Shown: positions 2 to 14,079 of the stretch, in pieces
How the letters are laid out: each line of letters begins with the position of its first letter
Position numbering within the stretch: position 1 is the first letter of the stretch
Source: Thermoflexales bacterium
GTDB taxonomy: Bacteria > Chloroflexota > Anaerolineae > Fen-1058
Assembly: GCA_030834835.1 (NCBI GenBank)
Contig: JAUQXD010000419.1
Location: 1-14,376, forward strand
Direction: 5' to 3'
Length of the DNA stretch: 14,376 nucleotides
The notes under the pieces: model-generated
The model's input: the letters and a program-made list of their open reading frames with translations, nothing else
What the model was told of the DNA's origin: nothing
The model's database searches: none
Program-made: the position numbers and the translations under genes

Positions 2-1855
2 TTGAAAGCAGAGGCTGATCGCCAGGCGGCCATCAAGGCGGAGCAAGACCGAATCGCCGCCGAACAGGTCCGCCTGAGTGAAGAGATTCTCGATACAGCC
101 AGACGACAGGCTGTCTCGACGGCGCATTTAGTGGTGCAAAGCGGGCCTAATGCGGGTCAGACCTTCGCGCTGCAAACGGGTATCAACATCATTGGCCGCA
201 CTGTCCGCGCCACGGTCCAGTTGTCGGACGTGCTGATCTCGCGGCAGCATGTGCGCCTCAATGTCGCGGCCGGGCGTGTGACGTTGGAGGACCTGGGCAG
301 CGCCAACGGCACTTTCGTCAACGCGCAAAGAATCAGCGGCGCACTTCCCGTCACACTCAATGCTGGCGATACGATTGCCATCGGCGATACGGTGCTGGTC
401 TTGCAGACGAAGGCTGACGCGCCGATCGTGCAGCCAGAAGAGCCTCACCCCGGACCGTTAGCTATCGAGCAGACCTTTATCGCGGAAGCCTCACCGCCGA
501 AATCATTTGCCGATCAACTGGTGGCTGATCAACCGACGCGACTGTCTCTTGGTGATACTCAGTTGAGCACTGCATTTGCCGCGCGGCTGAAGGTCATTGC
601 CGTTCCGACGTTGATTGCCGCAGCAGGCTTTGGCTTAAGCCTTGTGCTATGGATATCGGCCGTGAAAGGAGCATCTGACCTGACCCCGATCCTGGTATTG
701 TCGGTCGTAGCCATTGGGCTGCAATGGACCGCAATGGGCCTGGCGTTGCGACAGCTGCGGGTGCCGGTATCGCCGCAGCGCTTAGTAGCTGTCGCAGTGG
801 GGTGGGGCGTCGCGGGCGGGGCGAGCGTTGGTACGATCTATGCGCTGGTTGGGTTTTTCAACGATATCCCTGCATCTGATGTCACTGGCGCTACCGTGGG
901 CGCGATTTTAGGCGCGGTGTGCGGACTTGTCGGCGGACAGATCACCGGCCGCATCCTGCGCTCGCCTGTGCCAACGCTGCGTTTGGGCGCTACGACCTGG
1001 GGCTGGGCTTTCGCGTTGACTGCGGGGGGCGGTGGGTTAATGTCCACGGTCTTTGGCGGCAGCGGTGAAGGCCTCGATTCGGCGTTTGCCGTGTACGGCG
1101 CGCTGATCGGCGCGATTGGCGGCGGGATAATGTTCTGGCAAATCGCGCAGGGGCATGAGTCGGCCGCTCCTCACCGCTCTGTGTCTACCGTCGTCAAATC
1201 GCAGGCCGCACCGAACAGTTCCGCAACCGCCAGGCTTGATCTTTCGTCACCGATGGTGCGAGCCATTGGCATTATCTGCGGCGGGTGGGTCTTGATTGAG
1301 CTGCTTGTTGTGCTGGTCGGTCAAACTGCCTCATCGGCGGAAGAGACGGCCACGTTTCTCAGTCTGGGCCTGGGGGTGGGCAGCCTCGGCGTGGGTTACG
1401 TGTTGCAGCGCGCCATCCCGTCGATGAAGCGTGCGGCGTGGTGGATGGCGGCTATCTGGTCGCTGGCCTTAATCGGTGCGATACAGATCGGCGTTGTCAC
1501 TCATGTCGAATCGAGCGCGCTCAACGCTGTGGCGGTGGGGGTGTGCGGTGTCGTCAGCGCCTGGGCCGTGCTGCGTGACGTGCCGGGCGTGCCGCGCTGG
1601 CAATACGGCGTGATCGGCGCAATCTGGCTGGTAACCTATGCCATCGGCAGCGGCTACGCCTGGCATATGATCGCCTACAAAGCCCAGAATAATGGCTGGC
1701 GGATGGCGGACACCATGAACGCCCTCGGCCTGGACGTGTTCTCATTGACATTAGGCGCGATATTGAGCGCGGTTGCAGGCGGCGTGGTGTTATACCGCTT
1801 GCTGGATCGGGCGCGCGAGACGACCATCAACGCCGCCGGGGACGATCGGGGCTAG
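2..1855 (+). CDS. FHA-domain polytopic membrane protein (5' end at or beyond window edge)
   Basis: Residues 41-136 form a forkhead-associated (FHA) domain, a phosphothreonine-binding module. The hallmark residues are present: IIGR at 63-66, SRQH at 80-83 and SANGTF at 100-105. The first ~35 residues are rich in Ala, Glu, Arg and Lys and could be the end of a coiled coil. From about residue 197 to the end there are roughly twelve hydrophobic segments, many Gly/Ala rich, with no recognised transporter motif. The frame is open to the first base and begins with a TTG at position 2, so the true start is probably upstream and the protein is a fragment. The membrane part probably anchors a cytoplasmic FHA reader. 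Its FHA domain closely resembles that of the next protein, and a 23-bp stretch is identical between them (290-312 and 3132-3154). The FHA call is firm; the function of the membrane part is unknown. Confidence 0.85.
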   Translation: MKAEADRQAAIKAEQDRIAAEQVRLSEEILDTARRQAVSTAHLVVQSGPNAGQTFALQTGINIIGRTVRATVQLSDVLISRQHVRLNVAAGRVTLEDLGSANGTFVNAQRISGALPVTLNAGDTIAIGDTVLVLQTKADAPIVQPEEPHPGPLAIEQTFIAEASPPKSFADQLVADQPTRLSLGDTQLSTAFAARLKVIAVPTLIAAAGFGLSLVLWISAVKGASDLTPILVLSVVAIGLQWTAMGLALRQLRVPVSPQRLVAVAVGWGVAGGASVGTIYALVGFFNDIPASDVTGATVGAILGAVCGLVGGQITGRILRSPVPTLRLGATTWGWAFALTAGGGGLMSTVFGGSGEGLDSAFAVYGALIGAIGGGIMFWQIAQGHESAAPHRSVSTVVKSQAAPNSSATARLDLSSPMVRAIGIICGGWVLIELLVVLVGQTASSAEETATFLSLGLGVGSLGVGYVLQRAIPSMKRAAWWMAAIWSLALIGAIQIGVVTHVESSALNAVAVGVCGVVSAWAVLRDVPGVPRWQYGVIGAIWLVTYAIGSGYAWHMIAYKAQNNGWRMADTMNALGLDVFSLTLGAILSAVAGGVVLYRLLDRARETTINAAGDDRG

Positions 1856-1883
1856 CTCGATGCGTGACGGACCGTTCGCGAAT

Positions 1884-1925
1884 TTGACCGTTATCATCGA
1901 TTGCTGAATAGATACAAGGACTGGC
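1884..1925 (+). promoter_or_regulatory. Weak promoter candidate and ribosome-binding site of the caspase-FHA gene
   Basis: A TTGACC box lies at 1884-1889. The best -10 candidate, TAGATA at 1909-1914, is poor and the spacing of 19 bp is long, so the promoter is only a suggestion. AAGGA at 1916-1920, five bases before the ATG at 1926, is a credible ribosome-binding site and supports that start. The gap to the preceding gene is only 70 bp, so read-through is also possible. Confidence 0.35.
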
Positions 1926-4900
1926 ATGGCGCGCAAACTGGCCCTGATCATCGGCAACAGCCACTATCAAGACCCCAATCTTGCTAAATTGGTCGCGCCG
2001 GGTGAAGACGTCACTGATCTGACCGACGTGCTGGGCGATGCCGCCATCGGCGGCTTCGATCAAGTCATCCCGCTGATCAACGAAACCGACGCCGCGATTC
2101 GCCTGAGCATCGAAGATTTCTTCGCCGACAAAAAGCCCGATGATTTGCTGGTCATCTATTTCTCCGGCCACGGCGTGCGCGACGAACAGGGTCAGTTGTA
2201 TCTGGCCGTCAACAACACGCGCGCCAATCGGCTGCGCGCCACGGCCATCCCCGCTGAGTTCATCACGAGAGAGATGGATCGCAGCCGATCCAAACGGCAG
2301 GTGTTGATCCTCGATTGTTGCCACAGCGGCGCGTTCGCGCAGGGCGCCAAAGCCGTCACGGGCGAAAGCGCCGGCACCGGTCCGACGTTTGAAGGCAGCG
2401 GCTATGGCCGTGTGGTGCTGACGGCCACGGATGCGACGCAGTACGCGTGGGAAGGCGACAGGGTCATCGGCGAAGCGGACAATTCGCTCTTCACGCATTT
2501 CATGGTGGAGGGGCTGCGTACCGGCTCAGCCGATACTGACGGCGACGGCCAGATCACACTCGATGAGATGTACGATTACGTCTACGAACAGGTCGTGACG
2601 CGGACACCCAGACAAACGCCCGGCAAGTGGTCGTACAAGCAGCAAGGCGACATCATCATCGCCCGCAATCCCCGGCCAATCGTGAAGCCCGCCGAACTGC
2701 CCGCCGAAGTGCAGCAATTGCTCGATGATACTCGGCCATTGGTGCGTGAAGCGGGTGCGCGCGAATTGGCTCAACTATTGCGTAGCGACAATTCGGGCCT
2801 GGCATTGACTGCTTTGACGGCGTTAAAGAAACTGGCCGAAGATGACAGCCTGCGAGTGCGAATGGCCGCGACACAACTACTCCAGGCCACCGCACCGCCC
2901 ACAGTTACGACCGGTGAAGCCATCCACGAAACTGCCCCGCGTCTGCCCGCTGTCACGCCGGCCCGCGTGGTCATTCGCAGCGGACCGCTGGCGGGGAAGC
3001 ACTTTGCCTTACAGCCCGGTGTCAACGTGATCGGGCGTGGCCCGGCCAATGAGGTCAGTCTGGCTGACGACAGTTCGGTTTCGCGGCGGCATTCGCAGAT
3101 TGTGGCGCAGGGCAATCGCTTCACGCTGGAAGACCTGGGCAGCGCCAACGGCACCTTTATCAACGGCCAGTCTCTCACCGGCATTCACGTTCTGCGTGAA
3201 GGTGATGCGATTGCTGTGGGTGATACGACTTTGCTGTTTGAACTGAAATCGGCCGCACCGGCGCCTGTTCGCGAACTACCTGTTTCAATTCCAGTAGCGA
3301 CTGGCGAAACGTCGATTCAACCACCCGTCGAAATCCCCGGTGTGATAACTCAGTCGGAACAGTCTGCGGTGGCGGCTGCGCCCGATCGGGTGCGCGCGGA
3401 ACCGATCGGATCTCGGCCATCCCAACTTGATCGACGGTGGCTGGTGGCGGGCATCGTCGCCGCGCTGGCGATTATCGTTTTGATCGCCATCCCGTCACTC
3501 AATTCACCGGCAACCGCGCCCGCTGTAAAACCTCGGCCCACCAGCGAGGGGAGCGTGGCAACACCGTCTGCAGACTCGACGGAAGCGCCACAGCCGACTG
3601 ATGAGTCTCAAGTCACGCCGGCCCCTGAATCGTCATTTGAACCTGTATCAGTGTCGGCCTCTGACTGTACCTACGGGGGCCTCTTTAAGACTATCGAGAC
3701 GGTGGACGATCACACCGTAAGATTTGTGTTGTGTTCGCCGGATCCCGCGTTTGCTTTCAAACTGGCTTATCCCTCATTTGGTATTCAGTCGGCGCGGCAT
3801 CTGGCAGCCAGCGAGGGCAAGCCGCTTGATACGCCCCTGGGCACGGGGCCGTATAAACTGGCCGGCTGGTCACGCGGTGACCAGATCACGTTGGTTGCGA
3901 ATCCAGAATATTGGGGTGAAGCGCCGCACATGCAGACCCTCGTCGTCCGTTGGAACGAGCAGGCCGATGCGCGCGCGGTGGAGCTGCAAGCCGGTACGGT
4001 GGACGGCATCGACAATCCAGCCACCGAGCAGATCGCCCGTCTGCAGTCCGACTCGGCAGTGAAAGTGTATTGGCGCGCTGGCCTGAATACTTTCATGGTC
4101 GGCTTCAGCAATAATCAGGCCCCGTTCGATAATGAGATGGTCCGCCGGGCCATGGCCGTTGGCCTCGATCGCGCAGCCATAATCGAGAAGGGCTATCCCG
4201 GCGGCGCGACGCTAGCCGATTATGTGACGCCCTGTGAGATCGCGACGGGCTGTGGCGGCGAAGCCTGGTACGCTTACGATCGTGAGCTGGCTAAGGCGCT
4301 GCTGGCTGAGGCAGGTTATCCAGATGGCTTCACGATTAAGTTATCGTATCGCGATGTCGTCCGACCGTATCTGCCATCACCGCAGTTGGTGGCCGAGGAA
4401 ATTCAACGGCAATTGGCCGAACTGAACATTCAGGTTGAGCTGGATCCCCAGGATTCCGCCGAATTCTTGGAAGTGTCTGCGCGCGGCGAACTGGCGATGT
4501 TTCTTATCGGCTGGCAAGCCGATTACCCCGATCCGTCTGTCTTCCTTGCACCCAACTTTGGCCGGGACGCGGGCAACCGGTTTGGCTCACAGTTCGATGA
4601 TTTGGTTGATGTGCTTGATCAGTCCGCCACAATCAGCGTGGTGGCCGAACGCACGGACTTGTTCGCCCAGGCTAACAACCTGATCCGGCAGCATGTGCCG
4701 GCCATCCCTATCGCGCACAGTGGTCTGCCGCTGGCCTTCAGCGCAGCCGTTGAAGGCGTCCACGCTAGCCCGATGGGGCTGGAGGATTTTCGGACCATGC
4801 GCGTGTCTGGACAGGATACGTTGACTTGGCTGCAAGCCACCGAACCGCCCAGCCTGTACTGTGCCGATGAAACCACGCTCGACAGCCTGCGCGTCTGCGC

Positions 4901-5168
4901 ACAAATCTTCGACACACTGGTGAGTTATGCGCCCGGTTCAACCCGGCTCGTCCCCGGTCTGGCCGAAACGTGGGGATCCAGCGGTGATGCCACTGAATGG
5001 CTCTTCATTCTCAATTCCGGTGCGCGGTTTTCTGACGGCACGCCGTTGACGGCCAACGATGTCGTAATGACCTTCGTTGTGCAGTGGGACGCCGCTCATC
5101 GCCTCCACACGGGCAACTCCGGCGACTTCTTGTATTGGTACTTGTTCGGCGAATTCCTCAATCGGTAA
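1926..5168 (+). CDS. Transmembrane caspase-like protease / FHA / permuted SBP_5 receptor-like fusion
   Basis: A multidomain protein of 1080 aa. Residues 1-245 are a caspase-like (peptidase C14) domain starting with RKLALIIGNSHYQ, with catalytic His82 in YFSGHG and Cys132 in LDCCHSG. A full EF-hand-type loop, DTDGDGQITLDE, sits at 203-214. Residues 258-322 are Ala/Leu-rich helices, HEAT-like. Residues 346-438 are an FHA domain (VIGRG 368-372, SRRH 386-389, SANGTF 406-411). RRW followed by a hydrophobic helix at 505-523 predicts one membrane pass, N-terminus inside. A Pro/Thr/Ser linker covers 525-575. Residues 581-1080 match the family 5 solute-binding (oligopeptide-type) domain, but in permuted order: the usual C-terminal part comes first (581-960) and the usual N-terminal part last (961-1080). 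There is no signal peptide. Inferred role: a surface ligand sensor coupled to a cytoplasmic protease and a phosphothreonine reader. The domain calls are strong; the signalling role is a hypothesis. The start is supported by AAGGA five bases upstream. Confidence 0.9.
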   Translation: MARKLALIIGNSHYQDPNLAKLVAPGEDVTDLTDVLGDAAIGGFDQVIPLINETDAAIRLSIEDFFADKKPDDLLVIYFSGHGVRDEQGQLYLAVNNTRANRLRATAIPAEFITREMDRSRSKRQVLILDCCHSGAFAQGAKAVTGESAGTGPTFEGSGYGRVVLTATDATQYAWEGDRVIGEADNSLFTHFMVEGLRTGSADTDGDGQITLDEMYDYVYEQVVTRTPRQTPGKWSYKQQGDIIIARNPRPIVKPAELPAEVQQLLDDTRPLVREAGARELAQLLRSDNSGLALTALTALKKLAEDDSLRVRMAATQLLQATAPPTVTTGEAIHETAPRLPAVTPARVVIRSGPLAGKHFALQPGVNVIGRGPANEVSLADDSSVSRRHSQIVAQGNRFTLEDLGSANGTFINGQSLTGIHVLREGDAIAVGDTTLLFELKSAAPAPVRELPVSIPVATGETSIQPPVEIPGVITQSEQSAVAAAPDRVRAEPIGSRPSQLDRRWLVAGIVAALAIIVLIAIPSLNSPATAPAVKPRPTSEGSVATPSADSTEAPQPTDESQVTPAPESSFEPVSVSASDCTYGGLFKTIETVDDHTVRFVLCSPDPAFAFKLAYPSFGIQSARHLAASEGKPLDTPLGTGPYKLAGWSRGDQITLVANPEYWGEAPHMQTLVVRWNEQADARAVELQAGTVDGIDNPATEQIARLQSDSAVKVYWRAGLNTFMVGFSNNQAPFDNEMVRRAMAVGLDRAAIIEKGYPGGATLADYVTPCEIATGCGGEAWYAYDRELAKALLAEAGYPDGFTIKLSYRDVVRPYLPSPQLVAEEIQRQLAELNIQVELDPQDSAEFLEVSARGELAMFLIGWQADYPDPSVFLAPNFGRDAGNRFGSQFDDLVDVLDQSATISVVAERTDLFAQANNLIRQHVPAIPIAHSGLPLAFSAAVEGVHASPMGLEDFRTMRVSGQDTLTWLQATEPPSLYCADETTLDSLRVCAQIFDTLVSYAPGSTRLVPGLAETWGSSGDATEWLFILNSGARFSDGTPLTANDVVMTFVVQWDAAHRLHTGNSGDFLYWYLFGEFLNR

Positions 5169-5230
5169 CAACTGTCCGCCAGTTCATTGCCCGCCGGGCC
5201 AAAACGCCTGGCTCGAATTGGCGCGAATCG

Positions 5231-5239
5231 TGCTATACT
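5231..5239 (+). promoter_or_regulatory. Extended -10 promoter element before the TPR gene
   Basis: TGCTATACT is an extended -10 box (TGnTATAnT type) whose 3' end lies 46 bases before the ATG at 5286. No good -35 hexamer lies 16-18 bp upstream, which is acceptable for extended -10 promoters. It sits in the 117-bp gap after the caspase-FHA gene, so the TPR gene probably has its own transcript. No clear Shine-Dalgarno sequence precedes the ATG. Confidence 0.5.
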
Positions 5240-5285
5240 CTGAGACAGTCAACCGCTGTTCACTCTGGTTTGACTGGCAGACACT

Positions 5286-6257
5286 ATGGGCACTAAAGAA
5301 CTGCTGGGCCAGGCCATCCTCACCGCACAGCGCGGGTCGCCGGACAAAGCGCGCGACCTGTTTCATCTCGTACTGATTGCCGAGCCGCGCAACGAGCACG
5401 CCTGGGTCTGGCTGGCTTCCATCGCGACCAACGACGCCGAGCGCGAGGAATGCCTGCGGCAGGTCGTCGCCATCAACCCCGGACATCCCAGCGCCGTGGC
5501 CGAATTGCAGCGTGTGATCGAGAAACGCCAGCGAGAACTATCGGCGCAGGTGACCGCTTTGAGTGCCGCGCCGGTGCCGCCCCCGATTGATCCGGCGGCG
5601 ACTACTGCGGCCGGCGCCTCGACCACGCGCGGAGCAGCACCCGCCCGCCACCGTGGCGCGCTGAGCACTGGCCGCAAACCCATCCGGCCTCGCAATCAAC
5701 GCATGATTTTGTACGTGGGCGGTGGCGGCGTGATTGTCATCTTGATCGCAATCCTGGTCTCGCTGGTCGCCAATCGGTCTGCTGCTTCGACCCTATCCAC
5801 ATCGACACCGACGGTTACGCTGACCTTTACGCCGACGGTCCCGCCCACGTGGACGCGGACATTTACACCCTCGCCGACGAATTGTCCGCCGAATATCTGC
5901 ACGCCGACGCCGACCCTGACGCCGACACCCACCATTACGCCGACGGCCACATCGACGCTCACTTTGACGCCCAGCCGCACTTCGACGTCGACGCGCACGC
6001 CGACCCTGACGCGCACCCCCACGTCCACGAAGACCGAGACGCCGACGCGCACGGCCACATCAACCGCGACCAACACCGCTACGGCGACTTCAACCTCGAC
6101 GGCTACGTCGACTTCGACCGTCACCGCCACGCCGTCGCCAAAGGCCTCGTCATCACCCACGGTCAGCGTCACGCCCTCACTGACCATCACCCCGTCGCCG
6201 AAGGCTTCGCCGTCGCTGACGATTACGCCGTCGCGCACGGCAACCCGTACGCCATAA
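5286..6257 (+). CDS. TPR-like single-pass membrane protein with Thr/Pro-rich tail
   Basis: A 323-aa protein. Residues 4-80 resemble tetratricopeptide repeats: alternating amphipathic helices with motifs such as KARDLFHLVLIAEPRNEHAW and a second unit around VVAINPGHPSA. A Pro/Ala linker and a basic stretch (RKPIRPRNQR, 130-139) precede a hydrophobic helix at 141-162. This predicts a cytoplasmic N-terminus and an exported C-terminus. Residues 165-323 are almost entirely Thr, Pro and Ser with TPT and TST runs and the odd Arg or Lys, a mucin-like stalk that may reach into or beyond the cell envelope. Only two Cys lie in the tail (CPPNIC, around residues 203-208). No enzyme motif was found. The TPR part probably binds a protein partner, which cannot be identified here. 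The low-complexity DNA also leaves other frames open, but the TPR and membrane segments identify this frame as coding. Confidence 0.8.
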   Translation: MGTKELLGQAILTAQRGSPDKARDLFHLVLIAEPRNEHAWVWLASIATNDAEREECLRQVVAINPGHPSAVAELQRVIEKRQRELSAQVTALSAAPVPPPIDPAATTAAGASTTRGAAPARHRGALSTGRKPIRPRNQRMILYVGGGGVIVILIAILVSLVANRSAASTLSTSTPTVTLTFTPTVPPTWTRTFTPSPTNCPPNICTPTPTLTPTPTITPTATSTLTLTPSRTSTSTRTPTLTRTPTSTKTETPTRTATSTATNTATATSTSTATSTSTVTATPSPKASSSPTVSVTPSLTITPSPKASPSLTITPSRTATRTP

Positions 6258-6273
6258 TCGCGCAAATTGGCTG

Positions 6274-6282
6274 TGGTATAAT
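6274..6282 (+). promoter_or_regulatory. Consensus extended -10 promoter of the HD-domain gene
   Basis: TGGTATAAT is a perfect extended -10 element: TG, one base, then TATAAT at 6277-6282. It starts 17 bp after the TPR stop codon. Transcription would start near 6289, giving a leader of about 60 nt that is almost wholly occupied by the hairpin at 6298-6347. No good -35 is visible. Confidence 0.65.
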
Positions 6283-6297
6283 CCCGCGCACATTACC

Positions 6298-6347
6298 AAG
6301 ACCCTTCGGATTAAGCGGCTTTGCCGCGACGTAATCCGAAGGGTCTT
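6298..6347 (+). promoter_or_regulatory. Perfect 16-bp hairpin in the leader of the HD gene, covering the putative RBS
   Basis: AAGACCCTTCGGATTA at 6298-6313 is the exact reverse complement of 6332-6347. The loop holds a second perfect hairpin, GCGGC-TTT-GCCGC (6315-6327). The 3' arm contains GAAGGG (6338-6343), the only Shine-Dalgarno-like sequence before the ATG at 6349, so folding would hide it. No T-run follows the stem, which argues against an intrinsic terminator, although a role in ending the TPR transcript cannot be excluded. It could also be a copy of a dispersed palindromic repeat. Confidence 0.7.
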
Positions 6348-6348
6348 C

Positions 6349-6939
6349 ATGAGAATCGTCATGAATCGCGATGAAGCCTGGAACATTGTTACTGAATTTA
6401 CGGCCAGCGACTCGCTGCGTAAGCACATGCTGTCGGTCGAGGCGGCCATGCGCGCTTACGCGCAGCACTATGCCGCCGATGTCGATCGCTGGTGCGTGGT
6501 CGGCCTGCTGCACGACTTCGACTACGAGCGCTATCCGGACGTAGCCGTTGAAGGACATCCCGTCGTCGGGTCCAAGATTCTGCGCGAGCGCGGCGTGGAC
6601 GAGGAGATCATCCGCTGTATTTTGTCGCACGCCACGGAAGTGACCGGCGTCGAACGTGAGACGTTGATGGAGAAGGCGCTGTACGCGTGCGATGAATTGA
6701 CCGGCCTGATCACGGCGACGGCGCTGGTGCGCCCGAGCAAGAATATCGCCGATGTGGCCGTGTCCAGCGTCAAGAAAAAGTGGAAAGACAAAGTATTTGC
6801 CGCCGGGGTCGATCGAACGGAGATCGAACACGCCGCGGCCGATCTGGGTGTGCCGCTCGATGAACACATCGGCCGGGTCTTGCAGGCGATGCAGGCCATC
6901 GCCCCAATTCTGGGCCTGGATGGTAGTCTGGCGAAATGA
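6349..6939 (+). CDS. HD-domain (HDIG-type) phosphohydrolase-like protein
   Basis: A 196-aa soluble protein with HD superfamily metal ligands in order: His26 (SLRKHML), His55-Asp56 (LLHDFDYE), His70 (EGHP), His94 (LSHATEV) and Asp115 (CDEL). The length fits the stand-alone HDIG hydrolase group seen in many bacteria. HD proteins of this kind are metal-dependent phosphohydrolases; the substrate cannot be read from the sequence. The start at 6349 uses GAAGGG inside the leader hairpin. A second in-frame ATG at 6361 lacks any visible ribosome-binding site but would remove only four residues. The stop codon overlaps the next start (ATGA, 6936-6939), so translation is probably coupled to the LysM gene. 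Confidence 0.88.
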   Translation: MRIVMNRDEAWNIVTEFTASDSLRKHMLSVEAAMRAYAQHYAADVDRWCVVGLLHDFDYERYPDVAVEGHPVVGSKILRERGVDEEIIRCILSHATEVTGVERETLMEKALYACDELTGLITATALVRPSKNIADVAVSSVKKKWKDKVFAAGVDRTEIEHAAADLGVPLDEHIGRVLQAMQAIAPILGLDGSLAK

Positions 6940-8192
6940 AACTGCGTCGATCTGGCACGCCGCGTGAGGCGGAACCAAACGCGGCTGCGCCCGACAAGGC
7001 GGCGGCCGATAAAGCAGGCGCTGACCAACAGCGCAGCTGTCCGCAGTGCGGCTCGTTGATTTCCAGCCGCGCTAAGACGTGCCTCCATTGCAACGCCGAT
7101 CTGGTGGCGATTGCCAAAGCCGAAGCAGCCAAAATCAAGCAGTTGCAGCGCCAGCAGCAGGAAAAGCGCGAAGAGGCCGCCACGCTGCCCACGCGCGTCA
7201 TCGTCGTCATCGTCACGGCCTTGATCGTGGTGGCCATTCTAGCGTTGATCGTGCAAGGCTCGCAAGAATCGGCGCGATTGGCGTCGACGCCCACCGTGAC
7301 GCGTACGCCCACCCGCACGGTCACCCCTACGCGCACGCCGCAGCCTTCGCCGACGAAGGCCTCTACACCGACCATTCCGCCGCCGCTGGAATACATCGTC
7401 AAGAGCGGCGACACGCCCGGCGCCATCGCCGCCTTCTACGACATCAGTGTCGAAGAACTTTACGGCTTCAACGGCAAGCAGCCCGATGATTTCATCATCC
7501 CTGGCGAAGTACTCAAGATTCCGGTGCCCACGCCCAAACCGACGTCGACGCCCACCCCGATCGGGTTTGAGTTGACGCGCACGCCTGTGCCGCCTACGCC
7601 GGCTGAGGCTGTGTACACCGTTCAACAGGGTGACACGCTCCTCGCTATCGCCATCAAACTGAAGGTTTCGATGGAGGCGATCCAGCAGCGCAATAACATC
7701 GACGATCCCTCTGAATTGCAGGTGGGCCAGCCGTTAATCATCCCGCTGGGCGCGACGCCGACCTTTACGCCCGCGCCGGTGCCGGCCAATTCCACGCCCA
7801 CGCCGCGGTCCAACTATCCGGCCGTTAGATTGCTTACGCCGCTGGACGGCGAGATCATCGTGGGCAATGATCAGCCGGTGTTGCTGCAATGGCTCTCGGT
7901 GGGGGTGCTGCAACCGAACGAACTGTATCGGGCCGAAGTGGTGCAGTTGAACAGCGCGCGTTCGCCCTTGACGCTGCGCACGCTGGCGACCAGCTGGCGC
8001 TTGCCGCTGGATCTGTTCCCATTGCCCGGCGATCGCAATCGCGTGTTCCGCTGGACGGTCGAGATTATCCGGCAGGTCGGCGCCGGCAGCGACGGCGCGC
8101 CCATCTACGAAGTGGTGAGCCAGCTCAGCCAGTATAGCTTCCAGTGGCTGGCCGCCGCGCCCACGCCCACCGCCACCCCGACGCCGCGCTGA
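6936..8192 (+). CDS. Zinc-ribbon, single-pass membrane protein with two LysM domains
   Basis: A 418-aa protein. A CPQCG/CLHCN zinc ribbon (Cys35, 38, 49, 52) lies in a charged N-terminal region, followed by a short Lys/Gln/Glu-rich helix and a membrane helix at about 87-107. The rest is predicted outside: a Thr/Pro linker, LysM 1 (about 152-197, YIVKSGDTPGAIAAFYDISV), a second Thr/Pro linker, LysM 2 (about 226-272, YTVQQGDTLLAIAIKLKVSM), and a C-terminal beta-rich region of about 287-408, possibly Ig- or fibronectin-like, ending in a TPTATPTP tail. LysM domains bind N-acetylglucosamine polymers such as peptidoglycan, so this probably ties the membrane to the wall. No catalytic domain is visible. 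The 4-nt overlap with the HD gene marks an operon. Confidence 0.88.
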   Translation: MKLRRSGTPREAEPNAAAPDKAAADKAGADQQRSCPQCGSLISSRAKTCLHCNADLVAIAKAEAAKIKQLQRQQQEKREEAATLPTRVIVVIVTALIVVAILALIVQGSQESARLASTPTVTRTPTRTVTPTRTPQPSPTKASTPTIPPPLEYIVKSGDTPGAIAAFYDISVEELYGFNGKQPDDFIIPGEVLKIPVPTPKPTSTPTPIGFELTRTPVPPTPAEAVYTVQQGDTLLAIAIKLKVSMEAIQQRNNIDDPSELQVGQPLIIPLGATPTFTPAPVPANSTPTPRSNYPAVRLLTPLDGEIIVGNDQPVLLQWLSVGVLQPNELYRAEVVQLNSARSPLTLRTLATSWRLPLDLFPLPGDRNRVFRWTVEIIRQVGAGSDGAPIYEVVSQLSQYSFQWLAAAPTPTATPTPR

Positions 8193-12721: not shown

Positions 12722-13546
12722 CTACGGAATCGATTCGGCCAAGCGAAGCAGACTTTCTTGGGAAAGCGCCGTTGAGTCAGCCGCCAACATGAACGTCCGG
12801 CCGTTGCTTTCCCAGATCATCGATGCGCCTTTTGTAACATCCCTGTTTGACTTCCAACGAGAAGGATTCCATTTTCGCACTGAACCAGTTAGATCGGCCA
12901 GCCCGGTAACGCCACGGTAAAAAATGGCGGGTTGACCATTGAGCATGATTACTTGTGGTTCACTATCCGGCCCTACGCTAATGTATGACGCAAGAGCACA
13001 ACCTGAGGTTGGATCATGGGATGGTCCGTCAGGACAAGAGCCTTTCATGATGTGTAACTGGATTGTTTCACCGGCATCATTTTTCCATTCAAACAGAGCA
13101 GAAAACGGTGTCTCGTCAAACATAGACGCATAATAAAGCGCCCCTCGCGCTTGAAGTGTATAGCCGGATGGAATCCAGGTCGGCAGTCTTGCAAAGAATG
13201 AATAGCCGGTAGAAACATCGTTCGGACTTATCGGCGTCCAGATCAGAGAATAGTCTGCGCCGTCCCCGGTGGGTGCTGGTGGTTCTGCGCTGACAATGAC
13301 GGTCGTGCCTCGCACGGTTATTCTTGCAATGATATCGTCGATAGCCGCACGGACAGCCGGCGATACGGCAATCGTCAAGACGAACATCACGCCCAGGGCC
13401 ATCAGGGCAAAAGCCAGTCGTTTTGCAGCGGAGGTCCGGCTAACAGGTGCCTTGGCTTCTGCCTCTCGCGCCAGCCGTGCATAAAGCGATCGGGCAAACT
13501 CCGGTCGCGGCGACTGGCGAGACTTCGAAAGGAAATCGTCGTTCAT
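12722..13546 (-). CDS. Anti-sigma-factor-like single-pass membrane protein with DUF4367-like C-terminus
   Basis: A 274-aa protein encoded directly after, and overlapping by 4 nt, an ECF sigma factor. The first ~43 residues are charged (PRPEFARSLYARLAREAEAK) and likely cytoplasmic, as expected for a sigma-binding tail, but no zinc-binding HxxxCxxC motif is present. A membrane helix covers about 44-62. The outer part (about 70-274) is mostly beta-like. Segments such as LPTWIPSGYTLQ, VIMLNGQPAIFYRG and MIWESNGRTFMLAA are typical of DUF4367-type domains found in anti-sigma and lipoprotein-like sensors. Two Cys (171, 183) may form an outer disulfide. Inferred role: membrane sensor that holds the sigma factor. 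GGAGG at 13554-13558, seven bases from the ATG, supports the start. Confidence 0.78.
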   Translation of the reverse strand: MNDDFLSKSRQSPRPEFARSLYARLAREAEAKAPVSRTSAAKRLAFALMALGVMFVLTIAVSPAVRAAIDDIIARITVRGTTVIVSAEPPAPTGDGADYSLIWTPISPNDVSTGYSFFARLPTWIPSGYTLQARGALYYASMFDETPFSALFEWKNDAGETIQLHIMKGSCPDGPSHDPTSGCALASYISVGPDSEPQVIMLNGQPAIFYRGVTGLADLTGSVRKWNPSRWKSNRDVTKGASMIWESNGRTFMLAADSTALSQESLLRLAESIP

Positions 13547-14079
13547 GGTTTTTCCTCCCAGGCAGCACGTAATTGCTGCGTTACGCGATGGAGAATGGTG
13601 CCTACGTTGGATTCACTCATCCCAATCAGCTGAGCGATGGCGCGATTGGTAAGGCCCGCGCCGTATTTGAGTGCAACTAATTCGCGGTCACGGTCTGTCA
13701 AGCGGGCCAGCAGAATCGAGAGCCGTTCAAAATCTGACCGCTGTTGAACCACGCCTTCCACTGTTTCGTCGTCGGCTACCTGAAAGGCAGTATCAAGCGA
13801 GACTTCGGGATGGGGCCGGCGGAAGAAATCAACGACTACATGCCTGGCGATCGTGAATAGCCATGTCGAGAATGCGGCCAAATCGTGCCGGTATCGACGA
13901 CGATTTCGCCATGCTCTCTCGAAAGTCTCGGCCGTCAAATCTTCAGCCAGCCGGTCGTCGCCGACTCGATAGCGAAAGAAGTTGTAGAGCCGCGGTAAAT
14001 CTGCCTGGTACGCGGCTTCCCAGTCGACTTCGTGAGTGAAAGTGCTCAATCTTCCGAAGATGCGTGATTGGTCTGTCAT
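13543..14079 (-). CDS. ECF-type RNA polymerase sigma factor
   Basis: A 178-aa sigma-70 family protein with only regions 2 and 4. Region 2 spans about 24-90, with LPRLYNFFRYRVGDDRLAED followed by LTAETFERAW and the promoter-melting helix FSTWLFTIARHVVVDFFRR. Region 4 spans about 116-172, with LTDRDRELVALKYGAGLTNR followed by AIAQLIGMSESNVGTILHRV, the helix-turn-helix that reads the -35 box. The length is normal for the group. It would direct transcription of a small regulon in response to a signal passed by the membrane protein encoded next. The start ATG (14077-14079) has no spaced Shine-Dalgarno sequence, and the promoter at 14088-14116 suggests a leaderless transcript. Confidence 0.93.
   Translation of the reverse strand: MTDQSRIFGRLSTFTHEVDWEAAYQADLPRLYNFFRYRVGDDRLAEDLTAETFERAWRNRRRYRHDLAAFSTWLFTIARHVVVDFFRRPHPEVSLDTAFQVADDETVEGVVQQRSDFERLSILLARLTDRDRELVALKYGAGLTNRAIAQLIGMSESNVGTILHRVTQQLRAAWEEKP
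13554..13558 (-). promoter_or_regulatory. Ribosome-binding site of the anti-sigma gene
   Basis: GGAGG on the minus strand lies seven bases before the ATG at 13546-13544 and inside the last codons of the sigma factor gene. Together with the ATGA overlap, it gives both coupled and direct initiation. Confidence 0.8.

What the first reader, a model, noticed from the sequence alone, without database searches (positions are those of the whole stretch)
1926..5168. One-protein receptor candidate: outer solute-binding domain, membrane helix, inner FHA reader and caspase-like protease
Seen: intact caspase His/Cys motifs (H82, C132), an FHA domain, a single membrane helix at 505-523 preceded by basic residues, and a full-length SBP_5-like domain after it, in one frame without breaks. 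Known: caspase-like proteases are cytosolic effectors, FHA domains bind phosphothreonine, and SBP_5 proteins bind oligopeptides and similar ligands, usually as lipoproteins serving ABC importers. Inferred: ligand binding outside is passed to a protease inside, with Ser/Thr phosphorylation as a second input. I do not know of a described system with this architecture.
Basis: partly seen in the sequence, partly recalled or inferred. Interest (0 to 1): 0.88.

Follow-up and report, generated by a model that had tools for sequence, protein, structure and literature searches.

The report
Membrane caspase with rearranged peptide sensor
A bacterium, likely of the Chloroflexota, encodes one protein that joins a caspase-type protease, predicted to sit inside the cell, to a peptide-binding-type domain, predicted to sit outside, whose usual order of parts is shuffled end to front; it would let an outside peptide switch on an inside protease, and the same outer module is also found joined to TIR and kinase domains.

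Summary
Window 1926-5168 is one intact 1080-residue frame: caspase domain with its His/Cys pair, HEAT-like helices, FHA domain, one predicted membrane helix (506-524) and a complete SBP_5 domain. A database protein repeats the whole architecture at 77% identity, so it is not an assembly join. Its canonical N-terminal ~119 residues come last. The order is widespread: strong matches occur in 147 of 396 genomes sampled from the class and in some outside it, mostly as free lipoproteins of the transport type. The genome's own Opp operon carries a second, different permutation. The residues matching DppA's dipeptide anchors are kept. The caspase passes the NCBI cut-off for the 'EACC1-associated' subfamily. 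The same outer module occurs on TIR (four proteins), a Ser/Thr kinase (one) and another caspase, and trees reject a single origin of the caspase fusions. Most likely it is a peptide-gated membrane caspase. That is not wholly unprecedented: Kaur et al. 2020 already mention caspase-TM-PBP proteins in EACC1 systems. New, as far as my searches go, are the permuted DppA-type sensor, the FHA insert and the recurrent reuse of the module. Ligand, activation and target are untested.

The parts
1926..5168 (+). Whole gene: caspase - HEAT-like - FHA - TM - circularly permuted SBP_5 (1080 aa)
   Evidence: full-length homologue P0002, 77% over 100%
1932..2624 (+). Caspase (Peptidase_C14) domain, residues 3-233
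   Evidence: Pfam 71.7 bits; NCBIfam NF047832 'caspase, EACC1-associated type' 174 bits, cut-off 140
2169..2171 (+). Catalytic His82 (predicted)
   Evidence: SGHG motif in 28 of 28 proteins on file with a caspase match at E <= 1e-20, P0001 included
2319..2321 (+). Catalytic Cys132 (predicted)
   Evidence: DxC[HN]SG motif in the same 28 of 28
2532..2567 (+). EF-hand-like loop DTDGDGQITLDE, residues 203-214 (calcium binding only predicted)
   Evidence: strict loop pattern in 25 of the 28; the printed table shows DADGSGRITIDE in the other three
2709..2894 (+). HEAT-like helices, residues 262-323
   Evidence: HEAT_2 21.7 bits, below its cut-off of 27.7; helices, block pLDDT 90-96 for 261-320
3027..3221 (+). 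FHA domain, residues 368-432, with GR 370-371, SRRH 386-389 and NGT 408-410
   Evidence: Pfam 63.1 bits; motif scan
3441..3497 (+). Predicted membrane helix, residues 506-524, signal anchor with N-terminus inside
   Evidence: hydropathy scan; helix 503-520 in the model
3639..4808 (+). SBP_5 domain, canonical middle and C-terminal parts placed first (residues 572-961)
   Evidence: aligns to HbpA/DppA chain residues from about 120 to the end
4809..5165 (+). SBP_5 domain, canonical N-terminal part placed last (residues 962-1080)
   Evidence: aligns to chain residues 10-122 of HbpA2 3tpa
4362..4364 (+). Arg813, counterpart of DppA Arg355 (mature; Arg383 in precursor numbering)
   Evidence: alignment to 1dpe; Arg in 82 of 82 SBP rows
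4521..4523 (+). Asp866, counterpart of DppA Asp408 (mature; Asp436 in precursor numbering)
   Evidence: alignment to 1dpe; Asp in 82 of 82 SBP rows
2..1855 (+). Neighbour upstream: C-terminal 617 residues of another caspase-FHA-multi-TM gene, cut by the contig end; P0008 (1094 aa, source not shown) is the whole gene, 616 of 617 identical here and 295 of 296 identical to the cut caspase at the end of contig C80

Best explanation
This gene joins, in one unbroken frame, an EACC1-type caspase domain, an FHA domain, a predicted membrane helix and a circularly permuted DppA-like peptide-binding-type domain, and its product is predicted to act as a receptor in which a short peptide bound outside likely switches on the caspase inside. 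Proposed steps: (1) the membrane helix acts as a signal anchor, caspase/HEAT/FHA inside and SBP outside (predicted); (2) the SBP cleft closes on a short peptide, held by Arg813 and Asp866 (inferred from DppA); (3) closure changes the pairing or spacing of receptors through the membrane helix and the flexible linkers, and the caspases activate by proximity or cleave themselves (inferred); (4) the FHA domain recruits a phosphothreonine-bearing partner, so that a Ser/Thr kinase sets where or when the protease can fire (inferred), and calcium may act through the EF-hand-like loop (speculative); (5) the released or activated protease cuts cytosolic targets, probably in a conflict or regulated-death pathway as proposed for EACC1 caspases (inferred). 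The circular permutation is shared with a phylum-wide set of free transport-type lipoproteins, so it most simply predates the receptor (inferred from its distribution).
Against: No ligand, activity or topology data; the charge bias across the TM is weak in P0001 (3 against 2 Lys/Arg). P0001 keeps only 66 of 83 columns that are invariant in 74 non-fused rows, and the P0001/P0002 stem is long (1.0-1.1 changes per column), so the specificity may have changed. Effector fusions are rare: none was recognised among 396 class genomes besides this one, though searches used strict thresholds with 2 candidates scored per genome and only 20 long frames were read. Of the 5 genomes of the family, G002 and G003 have no permuted SBP at E <= 1e-90. 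P0003 has no FHA match, so phosphothreonine input is not general. Caspase loops 138-153 and 170-174 have pLDDT under 50, and the full-length model does not fix how the domains are arranged (pTM 0.54). Kaur et al. place the sensor in the EACC1 partner and read the C-terminal domains as effectors.
Confidence: 0.6

Rival explanations
1. EACC1-style device: a membrane partner of the neighbouring cluster senses the trigger and activates the caspase; the outer SBP is a passive anchor or an extracellular effector freed by self-cleavage, not the sensor.
For: The caspase passes the NF047832 cut-off. Kaur et al. propose that EACC1 senses at the membrane and that the caspase then deploys the C-terminal domain by autoproteolysis. 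Contig C80, which P0008 links to the upstream side of this window, holds two complete caspase genes, the cut third one, and an unidentified 203-aa gene.
Against: The 203-aa gene had no Pfam match above its cut-off and no NCBIfam match, so no EACC1 partner is shown. The SBP keeps its ligand anchors, which a mere anchor need not. The same SBP is joined to TIR and kinase domains.
Confidence: 0.16
2. Transport accessory: the SBP delivers peptides to an Opp-type permease in trans, and the caspase/FHA part reports on or limits that transporter.
For: Free relatives look like transport lipoproteins; in C900 a permuted SBP is followed by two permease genes and an ABC ATPase gene, and in G001 (L016) a permease gene lies beside one. 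In DppA the same two anchors also contact the permease's scoop loop.
Against: No permease among the 10 window ORFs scanned; the Opp operon already has its own SBP. Fusion to three kinds of signalling domain fits sensing better than transport.
Confidence: 0.1
3. The caspase part is mainly a scaffold: the FHA and HEAT-like parts assemble a kinase complex at the membrane, and ligand control of proteolysis is minor or absent.
For: FHA motif intact and the linkers are long and disordered (442-503 and 521-568 under pLDDT 50).
Against: Catalytic His and Cys motifs kept in 28 of 28 caspase-bearing proteins on file; the caspase is the most conserved part (93% between P0001 and P0002).
Confidence: 0.09
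4. Artefact: a mis-assembly of two genes or of a tandem SBP repeat, which would also explain the odd order of the SBP parts.
For: The genome is a 1452-contig assembly with 7% contamination, and tandem permuted SBPs exist (P0122, P0123).
Against: P0002 repeats the whole layout. The permuted order runs through 257 of 284 database proteins on file, and most of the rows listed for the 147 class genomes with a match span the domain in that order.
Confidence: 0.02

Closest known systems
EACC1-associated caspases ('System 4', Kaur et al. 2020, eLife, PMC7159879; section 33 read; NCBIfam NF047832)
   Same: N-terminal caspase of the same subfamily (174 bits, cut-off 140), variable C-terminal domains, and instances with TM helices followed by an extracellular periplasmic-binding-protein domain.
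   Different: That section mentions neither a circularly permuted or DppA-type PBP nor an FHA domain between caspase and membrane; it reports the system as prevalent in actinobacteria and sporadic in proteobacteria, with a 5' EACC1 gene, not shown here.
Metacaspases with receptor domains in cyanobacteria (Asplund-Samuelsson et al. 2012, PMC3501461; passages): ANF_receptor and CHASE2; also EACC2-caspase proteins with CHASE2 (PMC8195603; passages)
   Same: Caspase predicted inside, ligand-binding domain predicted outside, one polypeptide.
   Different: Other outer domains; the terms FHA, SBP and 'binding protein' do not occur in the 2012 text.
E. coli DppA and other family-5 (cluster C) solute-binding proteins (PDB 1dpe, 1dpp, 3m8u, 3tpa)
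   Same: Fold, 28-30% identity, both charged dipeptide anchors.
   Different: Circularly permuted, no lipoprotein or secretion signal of its own, fused to cytosolic domains; far below the DppA equivalog cut-off (207 against 1005 bits).
TpMglB-2 (Tp0684), natural circularly permuted glucose-binding protein (PMC4990184; passages)
   Same: A naturally circularly permuted, membrane-tethered solute-binding protein; its authors raise tethering as a possible reason.
   Different: Type I / cluster B sugar binder of other lineages; the terms oligopeptide, cluster C and Chloroflexi do not occur in that paper.
Free permuted SBP_5 lipoproteins of Chloroflexota (e.g. P0005, P0007, P0124; L016)
   Same: Same permuted order, same pocket residues, up to 53% identity to P0001.
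   Different: Lipoprotein signal instead of caspase-FHA-TM; beside a permease gene in L016.

Membership tests
Caspase / Peptidase_C14 (clan CD) | Pfam profile above its cut-off and His/Cys pair present | tested here: met
   71.7 bits, cut-off 21.4; SGHG and DCCHSG
Caspase / Peptidase_C14 (clan CD) | Proteolytic activity | not testable with these tools
   needs assay
Caspase, EACC1-associated type (NF047832) | NCBIfam subfamily-domain model above its cut-off | tested here: met
   174 bits, cut-off 140; four related proteins (P0008, two of C80, one of C374) 150-179 bits
EACC1 two-gene conflict system | A 5' gene encoding EACC1 | tested here: inconclusive
   The gene directly upstream is another caspase-FHA-TM gene; an unidentified 203-aa gene lies before that gene on C80, with no match above cut-off in Pfam or NCBIfam, and no model named EACC1 came up to test it with
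FHA domain | Pfam profile above its cut-off, GR...SRRH...N motif | tested here: met
   63.1 bits; GR 370, SRRH 386-389, NGT 408
FHA domain | Binding to phosphothreonine | not testable with these tools
   needs binding assay
SBP_bac_5 / cluster C solute-binding proteins | Homology and fold | tested here: met
SBP_bac_5 / cluster C solute-binding proteins | Canonical linear order of the domain | tested here: not met
   M1-M2-N instead of N-M1-M2; a canonical control, L021, matches the profile in one stretch 2-362
DppA equivalog (NF043070) | Equivalog cut-off | tested here: not met
   207 bits, cut-off 1005
ABC-transporter solute-binding lipoprotein | Lipobox signal peptide and permease neighbours | tested here: not met
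   frame starts with the caspase; no permease among the 10 window ORFs scanned with Pfam
TpMglB-2-like circularly permuted SBPs (Type Ic) | Cluster B fold with that break point | tested here: inconclusive
   The listed sequence matches of the SBP part are family-5 proteins, but TpMglB-2 itself was not compared

The most novel reading that the evidence does not exclude
Chloroflexota have a family of Toll-like single-pass receptors built on one portable outer sensor, a circularly permuted peptide-binding protein, plugged more than once onto different inner effectors (caspase with an FHA reader, TIR, Ser/Thr kinase): extracellular peptides would trigger proteolysis, NAD-related signalling or phosphorylation directly, without a transporter or adaptor. 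The sensor itself comes from what may be the first phylum-wide family of naturally circularly permuted cluster C binding proteins, which has been permuted a second time in this genus.
Probability: 0.4. Interest if true: 0.82.

Novelty: new variant of a known kind. Interest (0 to 1): 0.62.

Why it matters
If right, a bacterium reads an outside peptide with a transport-type binding protein and answers with a caspase in the same molecule, the layout of a death or immune receptor. Direct fusions make the ligand testable: the outer domain can be made alone, and its DppA-like anchors say which ligands to try first. The permuted SBP_5 family is of interest by itself: a large, natural, twice-permuted protein family with canonical relatives, tandem forms (P0122, P0123) and recurrent fusions, in which one can study how circular permutation arises and whether it favours use as a tethered sensor.

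Tried and rejected
Assembly artefact: rejected by P0002 and by the spread of the permuted order. The idea that the permutation evolved for the receptor: set aside, since free lipoproteins carry the same order across the class and matches occur in 22 genomes of the phylum outside the class (the 22 were counted by hand from the rows marked 'same phylum' among the 53 of 400 with a match). A single origin of the caspase-SBP fusions: rejected by the AU test (I had seen the quick tree first, but the group is defined by architecture). One origin of P0003, kinase and TIR fusions: not rejected (p 0.25 for three rows, p 0.11 for six rows), so I claim at least two origins, not more. The canonical relative L021 as outgroup: its branch came out at 6.8 changes per column and I dropped it from the later trees, so those trees are unrooted. 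The trees use chosen rows: 80, 48, of the SBP proteins then on file. An EACC1 identity for the 203-aa gene on C80: suspected from recall, no model match. More effector fusions in class genomes: none found with P0229 or P0003 (8 and 7 of 396 genomes matched, all rows starting after the effector part), at strict thresholds with 2 candidates scored per genome. Of the longer open frames around permuted SBPs, 20 were fetched (792-1348 aa); about 20 more of 785-850 aa were not. By reading their printed starts they begin with lipoprotein-type signals and other domains rather than effectors, except where an upstream extension or a contig end hides the start. The genome-contig scan returned 80 loci whose matched ranges all lie within residues 297-527, that is around the FHA domain; they were not used further. 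The sequential aligners cover mainly model residues 17-405, as expected for a permuted domain; they do not by themselves show where the last 119 residues pack. PADLOC: P0001 only a weak caspase match (45.7 bits); the kinase part of P0163 matches PD-T4-6 models (309 bits) and the TIR part of P0229 matches SAVED-TIR and Thoeris models (58.5 bits and less); these show domain kinship, not a defence role. Literature: circular permutation with binding-protein terms, orthocaspase with Chloroflexi (PMC6426788 passages, no FHA or SBP), caspase with FHA, Chloroflexi and solute-binding, metacaspase with solute-binding domain, TIR with binding-protein terms, EACC1; only open-licence PMC papers are held, so absence there is weak.
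Full report
What is there. Window 1926-5168 on the + strand is one open frame of 1080 residues. Pfam gives a caspase domain (3-233), a HEAT match below its cut-off (262-323), an FHA domain (368-432) and SBP_bac_5 (273 bits in two stretches). His82 and Cys132 stand in SGHG and DCCHSG, motifs present in 28 of 28 proteins on file with a caspase match. A loop DTDGDGQITLDE at 203-214 fits an EF hand; the strict pattern is met in 25 of those 28. One membrane helix is predicted at 506-524. The AlphaFold2 model of the full protein (mean pLDDT 80.2, pTM 0.54) shows caspase, helices, FHA, TM helix and SBP joined by disordered linkers 442-503 and 521-568; caspase loops 138-153 and 170-174 are poorly predicted and the arrangement of the domains is not fixed.

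It is real. P0002, from another source, has the same layout at 77% identity over the whole length: caspase 93%, FHA 74%, TM and the linkers beside it 42-52%, both SBP parts 81%. Conserved domains with drifting linkers are what selection on a working protein would leave.

The permutation is shared with transport-type proteins. In 147 of 396 class genomes a match at E <= 1e-90 was found, and most listed rows span the domain in permuted order (the list is cut and at most 3 candidates per genome were scored). In 53 of 400 phylum genomes there was such a match, 22 of them outside the class by my count of the rows. The free proteins look like lipoproteins: a lipobox-like pattern near the start in 210 of 228 proteins of 500-640 aa on file, the 18 others including 5 caspase proteins and truncated starts. 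C900 has two permease genes and an ABC ATPase gene after its SBP, and L016 has a permease gene beside its SBP. In the window's genus the Opp binding protein (G000 C900 and G004 C509) has a second break point, M2-N-M1, and in unrooted trees it groups with M1-M2-N proteins (96/84, 96/94), which suggests a second permutation of an already permuted gene. P0122 and P0123 carry two permuted copies in tandem, the kind of form that permutation by duplication would need.

The sensor goes with different effectors. Among the 284 proteins on file (P0001 and those listed, best 120 of each) eight join the permuted SBP to an inner domain with a predicted TM helix between them: caspase in P0001, P0002 and P0003, Ser/Thr kinase in P0163, TIR in P0229 and P0241-P0243. 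The three caspase proteins do not form one clade (p-AU 7.6e-94), nor do all eight (p-AU 2e-9); the four TIR proteins do (100/100), and P0003 pairs with the kinase protein P0163 (97/92). A common origin of P0003, kinase and TIR forms is not excluded (p 0.11). So there were at least two fusions. Conversely, caspase-FHA relatives carry other C-terminal parts: multi-TM regions (P0012), a PF06439 domain (P0046); a kinase follows the caspase in P0104, which has no FHA match.

Pocket and location. DppA's Arg355 and Asp408 (383 and 436 in the precursor) align with Arg813 and Asp866; both are kept in 82 of 82 rows, among them the eight fused forms. In E. coli these residues bind the dipeptide's ends and the double charge reversal abolishes binding (PMC12136057, passages). 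Six cysteines are kept in 80-82 of 82 rows, which suits an exported domain. On the other side, P0001 keeps only 66 of 83 columns that are invariant in 74 non-fused rows, against 81 of 83 in P0003 and P0163 and 68-74 in the TIR forms, so its ligand may differ.

Mechanism. Shown: the domains, their order, the permutation, the conserved motifs, the recurrence. Predicted: topology, fold. Inferred: peptide binding, activation of the caspase through the membrane, FHA and calcium inputs, target. The caspase passes the NCBIfam cut-off for the EACC1-associated type (174 bits, cut-off 140), as do P0008, two complete genes of C80 and one of C374. Kaur et al. 2020 (section 33 read) propose for such proteins a role in biological conflict with effector deployment by self-cleavage, and already mention TM helices with an extracellular periplasmic-binding-protein domain in the C-terminal position. 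They assign sensing to the EACC1 partner; that partner is not shown here. The retained ligand anchors and the recurrence with TIR and kinase make the outer domain the likelier sensor.

Known and new. Caspases with outer receptor domains are in print. The literature searches listed under Tried and rejected showed me no permuted cluster C binding protein, no caspase-FHA-SBP protein and no TIR-SBP receptor in the held open-licence library; most hits were seen as listings only. The closest permuted binding protein found is TpMglB-2, a cluster B sugar binder. I therefore rate this a new variant of a known kind, with an unusual sensor family behind it.

Noticed in passing
L009 (G000 C900) SBP frame ending at 3605 and L017 (G004 C509) 1164-2930: Opp-operon binding proteins with a second circular permutation (order M2-N-M1), break in the loop before 'VRQAL/VRQAI'; seen in both genomes of the genus that were searched.
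   Followed up: partly
P0122, P0123 (database proteins): Two permuted SBP_5 copies in tandem in one chain; the copies of P0122 are nearly identical in the tree.
   Followed up: partly
P0016, P0036, P0039, P0079 and many of L120-L139 by eye: Permuted SBP_5 domains fused behind other binding-protein domains (SBP_bac_3, Peripla_BP_6/ANF, SBP_bac_8, Peripla_BP_4) in single, mostly lipoprotein-like chains.
   Followed up: partly
L127 ORF 933-3635: One such chimera shows a CxxCH haem-type motif near its start, next to letters that read X; not examined.
   Followed up: no
L010 (G000 C80) 1945-7183: Three tandem caspase genes; the last is cut by the contig end and, by P0008, continues at the start of this window. 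A 203-aa gene (5672-6283) before it has no family match; its C-terminal GGDIVGRDK-type stretch recurs in five other places of the genome.
   Followed up: partly
L011 (G000 C374) 3-5192, - strand: A further caspase locus: caspase gene followed by two large genes, one with a weak AAA_22 match, and a third frame that looks regulator-like at its C-terminus by eye.
   Followed up: no
L021 / L146 (G001 C184): Canonical-order SBP_5 domain in the middle of an open frame of 1852 aa, with repeat-like regions before it and an unidentified region after it that looks protease-like to me by eye only (no Pfam match besides SBP_bac_5 in the 1299 aa scanned).
   Followed up: partly
window 5286-6257 (+): 323-aa ORF with a membrane segment and a long Thr/Pro/Ser-rich low-complexity tail; no Pfam match.
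   Followed up: no
window 12722-14079 (-): Sigma-70 family factor followed by a gene with a weak DUF4367 match; looks like a sigma/anti-sigma pair.
   Followed up: no
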